Under the pieces are notes generated by a model. It ran no database searches. It had not been told where the DNA came from and saw only the letters and a list, made by a program, of their open reading frames with translations. This document shows positions 14,699 to 30,210 of a DNA stretch of 32,090 nucleotides, piece by piece. The DNA is from Actinomycetota bacterium. GTDB lineage: Bacteria > Actinomycetota > Thermoleophilia > Gaiellales > F1-60-MAGs149. Position numbers and translations under genes: made by a program. How positions within the stretch are numbered: the stretch's first letter is position 1; every line of letters starts with the position of its first letter. The stretch is taken from the NCBI GenBank assembly GCA_009885805.1, contig VFJZ01000058.1:1-32090 (forward strand). Direction: 5' to 3'.

Positions 14699-15308
14699 GC
14701 TGACCGGAGAGCGCCCGCTCGGTCGATGCAGTGAGACCCGTGAACTGGAGCACCGACTGCTCCCCGTCGCACCGCACCACGACGGCGCCGAGAACGAGTT
14801 CGGCGCCGGGCAACGCAACCACGACCCGGTAGGCCGCGCCCTCCTGTAGCGTGGCGTCGACGAGCGCACCGCCAGCCGAGACGTTGAGGGTCTGCGCGGT
14901 GAAGGGGTCGGCCCTACCGATCGGCTCGCCACGCAGCGCCAGGCCGACACCGAGCCGCTCGTGCGAGCGGCGCTCCTCGAGTTCCGCGCGGGCGACGTCG
15001 ACGTGCAGCGTGGCCAGCGCGTTGTCCACATCCAGCACGAGCACCGGTACTCGAACGAGGCCGCGGTCGGCGACGCCGTACAGCGTCGCCGGTCCGGGCC
15101 GAAGCGACGCGAGGCTGGTTGGAGCCTCCGCCAGGACGCGGCGCCGAGCCGCGTCGGCGTGGACGATCCGGAGCGTGTCGAAGACCTCCCCGCCCTGCGC
15201 GAGCACCGCGCTGCGAAGGTCCTCGACGAGATCCTCGACCGTGGCGCGAACGCCCGAGCGGCGGTCACGGCGGTCGAACTCAGAGGTAGGCAGCGTCGAA
15301 TCTCCCAT
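14673..15308 (-). CDS. PilZ-domain protein, cyclic-di-GMP effector candidate
   Basis: The 211-residue protein has an N-terminal YcgR-like beta domain (about 35-108) and a C-terminal PilZ domain. The c-di-GMP ligands are visible: R-S-H-E-R (114-118, RxxxR) and NVSAGG (142-147, N/D-x-S-x-x-G). It probably binds c-di-GMP and controls envelope or motility functions, but no partner is nearby. The ATG at 15308 lies 6 nt after a minus-strand -10 box TACGAT. Its start codon is only 18 nt from that of the divergent membrane protein. Its 3' end overlaps the FAD/Fe-S gene. Confidence 0.87.
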   Translation of the reverse strand: MGDSTLPTSEFDRRDRRSGVRATVEDLVEDLRSAVLAQGGEVFDTLRIVHADAARRRVLAEAPTSLASLRPGPATLYGVADRGLVRVPVLVLDVDNALATLHVDVARAELEERRSHERLGVGLALRGEPIGRADPFTAQTLNVSAGGALVDATLQEGAAYRVVVALPGAELVLGAVVVRCDGEQSVLQFTGLTASTERALSGQLIRLAETP

Positions 15309-15313
15309 GGATC

Positions 15314-15320
15314 TATCGTA
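15314..15320. promoter_or_regulatory. Overlapping divergent -10 boxes within an 18-nt spacer
   Basis: Plus-strand TATCGT (15314-15319) is 7 nt before the GTG at 15327. Minus-strand TACGAT (15320 to 15315) is 6 nt before the ATG at 15308. The two boxes share five base pairs, so only one polymerase could occupy the site at a time. Any -35 contacts would lie inside the opposite gene. Confidence 0.55.
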
Positions 15321-15326
15321 CGTCCC

Positions 15327-16136
15327 GTGCTCCGATCCTGCCTGGATACGCTCGCCTCGCGCGGCGGCTACATCGGCGTGATGGCGGTCTGGGTGCCGTC
15401 GGCGCTGTACGTCGACGCGACGTTCGACCGCTGGGCGCAGTCGGTCGTCGCCGTCGTCACCTGGCTCCTGCTCGCGATGGTGTTCGCAGCCGTCGGCGCG
15501 CGGGAGCGCCGCCAGCTGGTCGTCGTCGTGATCGTCGCCACGGCGCTCGAGATCACGTTCTCGATCGTCTGGGGCCTCTACGTCTACCGCTTCGAGAACC
15601 TGCCGCTGTACGTGCCACCGGGGCACGGCCTGATCTACCTGCTGGCGCTGCGCCTGTCCGAGTTGCCCGGCGTGTCCTGGAGCCGCCGCCTGACGTCCGG
15701 CGCCGTCAGCGTCGCGGTCAGCGCCTGGGTCGTCGGCGCGCTGCTCCTGCCGGAGCATCCCGACCTCGTCGGCGCGGCCCTGCTGCCGTCGCTCCTCTAC
15801 TGCCTCTGGCGGGCGCGCCGCTTCCACGTCTACGCCGGCGCGTTCATCGCGACGAGCGTGCTGGAGATCATCGGCACGCAACTCGGCAACTGGCGGTGGG
15901 CGGCGACCGTGCCAGGGCTCGGCATCTCCCAGGGGAACCCACCTTCAGCGATCGCCGCTGGCTACTGCCTGCTGGACGCCGTCGTGCTCTACCTATGCGG
16001 CCGGCCGTGGCTCACGTTCCCACGAGAACGGTCCGACGCCAGCGCAGGGCCCTCCACGACAGTCAGCGCCGTCCACGTGATCGCAGACCCGACACACCAG
16101 GTGCAGACCGCGGCGATCTCGATCAGTTCGAGGTAG
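15327..16136 (+). CDS. Polytopic membrane protein, unknown function
   Basis: The 269-residue product has about seven or eight hydrophobic helices, among them WAQSVVAVVTWLLLAMVF, LVVVVIVATALEITFSIVW, SVAVSAWVVGALLLP, AALLPSLLYCLW and AAGYCLLDAVVLYLC. Conserved-looking polar loops are LYVPPGHGLIY and GTQLGNWRW followed by GISQGNPPS. I do not recognise the family. About the last 40 residues (after RPWLTF) are antisense to a VKOR remnant and look like read-through beyond the original end; the decayed copy downstream ends sooner. The GTG at 15327 follows a -10 box by 7 nt; the ATG at 15379 is a shorter alternative. Confidence 0.75.
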   Translation: MLRSCLDTLASRGGYIGVMAVWVPSALYVDATFDRWAQSVVAVVTWLLLAMVFAAVGARERRQLVVVVIVATALEITFSIVWGLYVYRFENLPLYVPPGHGLIYLLALRLSELPGVSWSRRLTSGAVSVAVSAWVVGALLLPEHPDLVGAALLPSLLYCLWRARRFHVYAGAFIATSVLEIIGTQLGNWRWAATVPGLGISQGNPPSAIAAGYCLLDAVVLYLCGRPWLTFPRERSDASAGPSTTVSAVHVIADPTHQVQTAAISISSR

Positions 16137-28677: not shown

Positions 28678-29109
28678 TCAGATCTGGCCGAGCTTGCCGC
28701 TGAAGTCGGTGATGAGCGCGTCGAGCACGCCGACCATGACGCCCTCGCCCATCGACGCGGCCTTGCCCGTGATCTGCGCGTTCGTGCGGATCGTCCCGCC
28801 TCCCTCGCTCAGGTCGAACGCGACGGTCGCGTTGGCGTACCCCTGACCACCCGCCTCGCGCGACTTCACCGTCAGCACGATCCGGTGCGCGGCGGCGTCC
28901 TGCTCGGTGATCTCGACGGTGCCGGTGAACGTCATCGACATCGCGCCCATGCGGATCTTGATCTCCGCCCGGACCAGCTCCGGCGACGGCCGCTCGAGCA
29001 CGGTCGCTCCCTCGACGCACGGCACGACGCTGTCGAGATCGAGGATGGCGACGAAACTCTCGTCGAGCGATCGCGCGGTGCTGAACGGGTTGAAGAGCTC
29101 GACGGCCAT
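28678..29109 (-). CDS. CoxG-like SRPBCC-family protein
   Basis: The 143-residue product starts with VELFNPFSTARSLDESFVAILDLDSVVPCVEGATVLE, the SRPBCC/START-like pattern of CO dehydrogenase subunit G, and continues YANATVAFDLSEGGGTIRTNAQITGKAASMG. CoxG is an accessory protein that anchors or assists CO dehydrogenase at the membrane; homologues accompany other molybdenum hydroxylases. The ATG follows a minus-strand TATACT by 7 nt. It is 24 nt from the divergent YceI start. Confidence 0.87.
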   Translation of the reverse strand: MAVELFNPFSTARSLDESFVAILDLDSVVPCVEGATVLERPSPELVRAEIKIRMGAMSMTFTGTVEITEQDAAAHRIVLTVKSREAGGQGYANATVAFDLSEGGGTIRTNAQITGKAASMGEGVMVGVLDALITDFSGKLGQI

Positions 29110-29116
29110 GGCGGGC

Positions 29117-29126
29117 AGTATAGGAT
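29117..29126. promoter_or_regulatory. Overlapping divergent -10 boxes (CoxG-like / YceI-like)
   Basis: Minus-strand TATACT (29122 to 29117) is 7 nt before the ATG at 29109. Plus-strand TAGGAT (29121-29126) is 7 nt before the GTG at 29134. The boxes share two base pairs, so the two start sites cannot easily be used together. Confidence 0.55.
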
Positions 29127-29133
29127 CCACGGC

Positions 29134-29697
29134 GTGACCATTCCCGCGGGCATCTACCACCTGGGACCCGACACCGCGACGCTCGCGGTGCGCACCGGCC
29201 GCACCGGCGCCGCCGCCAAAGCGGGCCACGACCTCCTCCTGCACGTCACGGCGTGGGAGGCAACGCTCGAGGTCGGCGCCGATCCGGCCGACACGCGGGT
29301 CGAAGTGACCGCGGACGGCGCGTCGCTCCGCGTGCAGGAGGGCACCGGCGGGCTTCAGGCGCTCGGTGACGACGACAAGGCCGACATCGCGAAGACGATT
29401 GACGACGAGGTGCTGAAGGGGCAGCCGGTCACGTTCCGGTCATCCGCGGTGCGTGTGAACGGAGGCGGCCTCATGGTCGAGGGTGACCTGACGCTGCTCG
29501 GGACGACCCGCCCCGTCACCGCGCAGGTCACGATCGGCGGCGACGGCCTGATCACCGCGCACGCCGCCGTCAGGCAGACGGACTTCGGGATGAAGCCCTA
29601 CTCGACGCTGTTCGGCGCTCTGAAGGTCGCTGACGAGGTCGCGGTTTCGCTCGTTGGAACGTTGGGGCCAGGCCCCTATGTTCCACCACCAGGCTGA
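29134..29697 (+). CDS. YceI-family lipocalin-like protein, tail encoded by a repeat
   Basis: The 187-residue product shows the YceI beta-barrel pattern: AGIYHLGPDTATLAVRTGR, GHDLLLHVTAWEATLEV and DLTLLGTTRPVTAQVTIGG, with the terminal strand DFGMKPYSTLFGALKVADEVAVSLVG. YceI proteins bind isoprenoid-like lipids. No signal peptide is present, unlike the periplasmic E. coli protein, which fits a cytosolic actinobacterial form. The last dozen residues, GTLGPGPYVPPPG, are encoded by the left arm of the 31-nt hairpin repeat pair. The GTG start is 7 nt after TAGGAT. Confidence 0.87.
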   Translation: MTIPAGIYHLGPDTATLAVRTGRTGAAAKAGHDLLLHVTAWEATLEVGADPADTRVEVTADGASLRVQEGTGGLQALGDDDKADIAKTIDDEVLKGQPVTFRSSAVRVNGGGLMVEGDLTLLGTTRPVTAQVTIGGDGLITAHAAVRQTDFGMKPYSTLFGALKVADEVAVSLVGTLGPGPYVPPPG

Positions 29698-29748
29698 AGC
29701 ATCAACGCGCGACCGCGTGGAACAAAGGGGCCTGGCCCCAACGTTCCA
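29655..29748. repeat. Inverted pair of 31-nt hairpin units, variant 2
   Basis: The left arm (29655-29685) and right arm (29718-29748) are reverse complements with one mismatch, separated by 32 nt. Each arm has TGGAAC/GTTCCA at the ends and GGGG/CCCC as inner stem with a five-base loop. Aligned to variant 1 (4518-4548), 18 of 31 positions are identical, including CAAAGG at 6-11. The left arm lies inside the YceI gene; the right arm ends one base before the stop codon of the CoxL fragment. Confidence 0.92.
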
Positions 29749-30210
29749 CTAATCCGCGTAGACCGCCTGCGCGTCCAACCCGCCCTCGACCCCCGGCGGC
29801 AGCGCTCCGGAGCCGTGCGCATACAGGGCGATGTCCGCGACGGTGCGCATCCGGCTCGGATCCGATCCGTCACCGGCGACCCAGGCGCCGTTCGACCACG
29901 CCAGGCTCTCCGGTGCCTCGCCGAGCGCCATCCCGGCGAGCAGTTCCCCCTTCTCGCGGATCTTCGCGGTCGCCCGCGTAATCGCCGCTGCCGTCCCCGG
30001 AGACGGGCTCGTGTTGAACCCGTGGCCATTGCCGAACCGGTCGGTGTCGGCCGGAACGACCTTGACATCAAGCGCCGGGACGCCGAGTGCGTCCGCAACG
30101 AGCTGCGCGTGGGACGACTCCTGCCCGTCGGCCGCCGTGGTCAGGCTGAGCACCATCTTCCCGGTCGGGTGCACGCGGAGAAACACCGCTCGGTACGCCT
30201 CGTTCGCCAT
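29749..30210 (-). pseudogene. Isolated fragment of a molybdenum hydroxylase large subunit (CoxL/XdhB type)
   Basis: The 153 residues match only the middle of a CoxL-type subunit (about 770-800 residues when complete). FLRVHPTGKMVLSL, then ADGQESSHAQLVADALGVPALDVKVVPADTD, correspond to the conserved segment around the GQGHET motif. The GQGHE itself is changed to GQESS, and the following G-S-R-S loop is replaced by GFNTSPSPG. It stops abruptly after GGLDAQAVYAD, where the family continues with Y-D-P-P, exactly at the edge of the 31-nt repeat. It is still preceded by GAGGAG and overlaps the upstream small gene, so it could be translated. Cofactor-binding regions are missing. It is either a truncated remnant or an unusual stand-alone domain. 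Confidence 0.7.

What the first reader, a model, noticed from the sequence alone, without database searches (positions are those of the whole stretch)
29107..29136. Second interlocked divergent leaderless pair (CoxG-like / YceI-like)
Start codons at 29109 (minus) and 29134 (plus) are 24 nt apart, with TATACT (minus) and TAGGAT (plus) overlapping by two base pairs. A second independent case of the layout at 15314-15320 suggests it is a recurring promoter architecture in this genome.
Basis: partly seen in the sequence, partly recalled or inferred. Interest (0 to 1): 0.66.

Follow-up and report, generated by a model that had tools for sequence, protein, structure and literature searches.

The report
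Shared two-way promoter, no leaders
A 24-base gap between two genes that point away from each other very probably holds one two-way promoter that starts both messages at or next to their start codons; the same compact layout recurs dozens of times in this bacterium and is partly conserved in relatives, so it is a real but understandable variant of known bacterial bidirectional promoters.

Summary
It is not chance. In 2.45 Mb (69%) of the same genome, 16 called divergent pairs have this shared-TA layout (shuffled spacers: mean 0.04, maximum 2 in 1000). A gene-call-free scan finds 41 sites against 1 for the reversed pattern. About 20% of called genes (497 of ~2,450) carry TANNNT 6-9 nt before the start, so leaderless genes are a main mode here. 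At this locus the 10-mer (ANTATAGGMT) persists across three families of the order at 57-75% protein identity. Two relatives also keep the double-leaderless 22-nt gap; three others keep the 10-mer but have a longer, Shine-Dalgarno-bearing CoxG leader. Best reading: a minimal bidirectional -10 promoter of the known 23-bp class (Warman/Grainger), both products leaderless, polymerase binding one way at a time. The window's 15314 pair is a different geometry (18-bp class), not clearly enriched in the gene-free scan. No RNA 5' ends exist to prove it. New variant of a known kind.

The parts
28678..29109 (-). CoxG-family (PF06240) gene, ATG at 29109
   Evidence: Pfam 7.7e-9; start recovered by box-blind gene calling; orthologues align from residue 1-3
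29134..29697 (+). YceI-family (PF04264) gene, GTG at 29134
   Evidence: Pfam 3.2e-14; start recovered by box-blind gene calling
29110..29133 (.). 24-nt intergenic spacer, essentially the whole bidirectional promoter core
   Evidence: sequence
29117..29122 (-). -10 box TATACT of coxG, 7 nt before the ATG; predicted TSS at or within 1 nt of 29109
   Evidence: sequence; TATACT-6nt-GTG in G001 (L023), TATAGT-6nt-ATG in G102 (L097)
29121..29126 (+). -10 box TAGGAT of yceI, 7 nt before the GTG; predicted TSS at or within 1 nt of 29134
   Evidence: sequence; TAGGCT-6/7nt-start in L003, L020, L021, L023, L097
29121..29122 (.). shared TA dinucleotide, the first two bases of both -10 boxes
   Evidence: sequence; defines the offset +4 class
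15306..15329 (.). Related but different divergent pair (PilZ gene minus, unnamed gene plus): CAT-GGATCTATCGTACGTCCC-GTG region, boxes TACGAT(-)/TATCGT(+) overlapping by 5 bp (TANNNTA, 18-bp class); not the same layout
   Evidence: class not clearly enriched in the gene-free scan

Best explanation
The 24-nt spacer is a minimal bidirectional sigma-A-type promoter. One 10-bp core (AGTATAGGAT) holds two -10 boxes that share their TA; RNA polymerase can bind in either orientation, but not both at once, and starts at or within a base of each start codon, so coxG and yceI are both expressed as leaderless mRNAs. Shown: the sequence geometry, its genome-wide recurrence, and its conservation in relatives. 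Inferred: promoter activity, exact 5' ends, leaderless translation, and mutual exclusion of polymerases. In three relatives the core persists while coxG has an SD-bearing leader, so the coxG start codon has moved relative to a fixed promoter. The layout recurs probably because sharing TA needs only four fixed bases instead of six, the cheapest way to pack two leaderless promoters into a compacted divergent gap in a 71% GC genome.
For: TANNNT peaks sharply at 6-9 nt before starts: 239/144/74/57 against about 6 per position background. 16 called pairs with the shared-TA offset, out of 58 double-box pairs; shuffle mean 0.036, max 2 of 1000. 41 sites against 1 reversed control, other offsets giving 0-6 apart from 9 (control 7) at -1; 34 of 41 are intergenic and 16 sit exactly on two called starts. 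Among leaderless genes, the base completing the opposite box (A at -4) is present in 63% of divergent starts with 20-28 nt gaps, against 10% in co-directional genes and in divergent 29-60 nt gaps. Orthologous spacers: AGTATAGGCT with 22-nt gap in G001, ACTATAGGCT with 22-nt gap in G102, ATTATAGGCT/ACTATAGGCT with SD leaders in L003, L020, L021 (tree). A second pair (L137) keeps its interlock in G001, ANGGTAGCGT at 58% protein identity. Most of the other 15 pairs carry Pfam-supported genes. Order-wide 235 sites against 35 control. Bidirectional promoters with 18, 10 and 23 bp TSS spacing are described (PMC12825309); offset +4 equals 23 bp by arithmetic.
Against: No RNA data for this organism. 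A TANNNT box alone is weak evidence of a promoter: in M. tuberculosis about 3,100 of some 16,400 copies have a TSS (PMC3898074). Given one box, the partner needs only one further A, about 10-17% by chance. In several relatives the yceI box is kept but the opposite box is not (L007, L012, L013, L017, L018), so bidirectionality is not universal at this locus.
Confidence: 0.83

Rival explanations
1. Only yceI uses the spacer as a leaderless promoter. The minus-strand TATACT is a by-product, and coxG is transcribed from a promoter inside yceI, with its leader read through the spacer.
For: The yceI-side box is the more widely conserved element: most relatives have TANNNT 6-7 nt before yceI, while the coxG-side box is absent in L007, L012, L013, L017 and L018.
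Against: coxG has no Shine-Dalgarno site at working distance here, in G001 or in G102, unlike the longer-gap relatives. TATA[CG]T-6/7nt-RTG is kept in all three, and opposite-box completion is 63% in short divergent gaps against 10% elsewhere.
Confidence: 0.12
2. Chance overlap of two A/T-rich hexamers in a short intergenic gap.
For: Sharing TA lowers the requirement to four fixed bases; TANNNT is a low-information motif.
Against: 41 sites against 1 reversed control, 16 against 0.04 shuffled, conservation across genera at 57-75% protein identity.
Confidence: 0.02
3. The spacer is mainly an operator for a regulator, and the pseudo-symmetric 10-mer reflects a protein-binding site.
For: Short divergent gaps often hold operators (general knowledge). 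One other interlocked pair has a GntR regulator as partner (L202).
Against: Across the 16 pairs only the ANNNTANNNT bases recur, the other bases differ, and the genes are unrelated in function.
Confidence: 0.03

Closest known systems
Bidirectional prokaryotic promoters with shared -10 elements (Warman, Grainger and co-workers; PMC12825309, PMC10268837)
   Same: Divergent starts around overlapping -10 elements; the offset +4 here corresponds to their 23-bp TSS class, and the 15314 pair to their 18-bp class.
   Different: Here the dominant class is the shared-TA one, not 18 bp; both products are predicted leaderless mRNAs of two protein genes, and the promoter fills the whole 22-27 nt gap.
Leaderless TANNNT promoters of high-GC bacteria (PMC3160421; M. 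tuberculosis, PMC3898074; Deinococcus-Thermus, PMC12340547)
   Same: TANNNT 6-9 nt before the start codon, no detectable -35 consensus.
   Different: Those works treat single promoters; 'divergent', 'bidirectional' and 'opposite' do not occur in the Deinococcus paper. The shared-TA double arrangement is not described in the passages read.
Juxtaposed divergent leaderless promoters of M. tuberculosis, e.g. prpD/Rv1129c (PMC3898074)
   Same: Divergent neighbours, both leaderless by mapped TSS; closely juxtaposed divergent promoters are called common there.
   Different: No interlocked -10 geometry reported in the passages read.

Membership tests
Bidirectional promoter (Warman/Grainger definition) | -10 elements reciprocally overlapping on opposite strands | tested here: met
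   TATACT and TAGGAT share TA at 29121-29122
Bidirectional promoter (Warman/Grainger definition) | Divergent TSS pair 7-25 bp apart | not testable with these tools
   Predicted 23-25 bp from box positions; no TSS data
Bidirectional promoter (Warman/Grainger definition) | One RNA polymerase excludes the other | not testable with these tools
   Follows sterically from overlap; not measured
Leaderless gene (TANNNT type) | -10-like box about 12-13 nt upstream of the start codon, no Shine-Dalgarno | tested here: met
   Both boxes 7 nt before their starts; no SD in the spacer on either strand; genome-wide peak at the same distance
Leaderless gene (TANNNT type) | mRNA 5' end at the start codon | not testable with these tools
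   No transcript data
   15314 pair has offset -1 and a 5-bp overlap; that class has 9 sites against 7 control

The most novel reading that the evidence does not exclude
In this order of Thermoleophilia, divergent genes are under selection to collapse onto a single 10-bp shared-TA core with no leader on either side, making a class of switch-like gene pairs whose transcription is mutually exclusive per polymerase binding event, with leaders gained and lost around a fixed core.
Probability: 0.2. Interest if true: 0.6.

Novelty: new variant of a known kind. Interest (0 to 1): 0.42.

Why it matters
It gives a sequence-only signature for about the most compact two-gene promoter plausible in bacteria, usable to correct start codons. 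It also offers natural pairs to test polymerase competition without leaders, and a locus where the same promoter core is seen with and without a leader.

Tried and rejected
The greedy gene caller missed yceI; replaced by dynamic programming. A -35 consensus was sought upstream of 497 leaderless starts: none. The interlock pattern across other classes of the phylum is only weakly enriched (286 against 203), and A/T-rich genomes inflate both counts, so lineage specificity outside the class is not settled. A resemblance between own L066 and a G001 site (L205) was checked and found not orthologous. Warman 2021 itself is not held. No paper combining bidirectional promoters, leaderless, divergent and M. 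tuberculosis was found.

Full report
Observation. The sequence is as described. CoxG-family ATG at 29109 on the minus strand and YceI-family GTG at 29134 on the plus strand enclose 24 nt. TATACT (minus) and TAGGAT (plus) each lie 7 nt from their start and share TA at 29121-29122. Both proteins match Pfam. A gene caller using codon usage only, with no promoter or ribosome-site term, picked exactly these two starts.

Genome context. I took 2.45 Mb of the 3.56 Mb draft genome (71.4% GC). Among about 2,450 gene starts, TANNNT occurs 239, 144, 74 and 57 times with 6, 7, 8 and 9 nt to the start codon, against about 6 at other distances. Leaderless genes are thus a major class, and no -35 consensus is visible upstream of them, as reported for M. 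tuberculosis (PMC3898074).

Divergent pairs. Of 366 divergent pairs, 58 have a box at 6-9 nt on both sides, and 16 of these have the plus box offset by +4 from the minus box, i.e. the shared TA; no other offset exceeds 4 pairs. With spacers shuffled, the mean is 0.036 and the maximum 2 in 1000. Shuffling is a lenient null because leaderless boxes are common, so two other comparisons were made. Without gene calls, the pattern gives 41 sites against 1 for its reversed form; 34 of the 41 are intergenic. Conditional on one leaderless box, the A that completes the opposite box is present in 63% of divergent starts at 20-28 nt gaps, but in 10% of co-directional ones and of divergent ones at 29-60 nt. 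Part of the 63% arises because a double-leaderless pair in such a gap can hardly be arranged otherwise: offsets 0, 3 and 5 are impossible by base conflict, and only +4 and -1 need four rather than six fixed bases. The preference for +4 can therefore be an economy of sequence, not a regulatory advantage.

The two window cases. That class has 3 called pairs elsewhere but 9 sites against 7 in the reversed control, so it is not established as recurrent. The two belong to the 23-bp and 18-bp classes of bidirectional promoters (spacings from PMC12825309; the mapping of offset to spacing is my arithmetic).

Comparative evidence. The divergent coxG/yceI pair occurs widely in Thermoleophilia, while in Solirubrobacter the two genes are co-directional. 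Spacers: own CAT-24 nt-GTG with AGTATAGGAT; G001, another genus of the family, 22 nt with AGTATAGGCT; G102, another family, 22 nt with ACTATAGGCT. In these three neither gene has a Shine-Dalgarno site at working distance. L003, L020 and L021 hold ATTATAGGCT or ACTATAGGCT next to yceI, but coxG lies 35-45 nt from its box with a Shine-Dalgarno site. L011 and L117 (a more distant family) have AATATAAGCT with 42 nt. Several other relatives keep only the yceI box. In the tree the window, G001 and the three SD-leader loci form one supported group (96/97) in which leaderless and leadered forms are mixed (inner forks weakly supported), and G102 falls elsewhere (86/89). So the core appears older than the leader state, and the leader probably changed at least twice; the direction of change is not resolved. 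One other interlocked pair (L137) is also conserved in G001.

Reach. The 22-nt form of the pattern totals 235 against 35 control in 103 genomes of the order, and 286 against 203 in 136 genomes of other classes of the phylum (sums from counts copied out of the tables). Enrichment is clear in this order; beyond the class it is weak and confounded by base composition.

Mechanism. The most likely mechanism is a single shared promoter core used in either orientation, giving two leaderless mRNAs. Sequence, recurrence and conservation are shown; transcription, exact 5' ends and polymerase exclusion are inferred. In E. coli, basal activity of such promoters is too low for competition unless one side is activated (PMC12825309), so strong antagonism here should not be assumed.

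Noticed in passing
29652-29752: Inverted GGGGCCAGGCCCC / GGGGCCTGGCCCC elements flanked by GTGGAAC-like ends straddle the yceI stop codon. The core palindrome occurs 22 times in 2.45 Mb, 20 of them intergenic: a dispersed intergenic repeat family.
   Followed up: partly
window 15306-15329: Divergent PilZ / unnamed-gene pair with TANNNTA boxes (18-bp class); the box-blind gene caller put the PilZ start at 15206 instead of 15308, so the start is uncertain.
   Followed up: partly
L006 (also G101, L095/L103): In a relative the coxG/yceI gap is 33 nt with two separate leaderless boxes (TAAGAT, TATGAT) 7 bp apart, not interlocked.
   Followed up: no
L008, L009 coxG/yceI spacers: An AGGAG Shine-Dalgarno-like site lies directly after the coxG-side box, too close to be in an mRNA started from that box.
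   Followed up: no
own genome, divergent pairs: Non-overlapping double-leaderless pairs seem to cluster at box offsets 10-12, 17 and 19; numbers are small.
   Followed up: no
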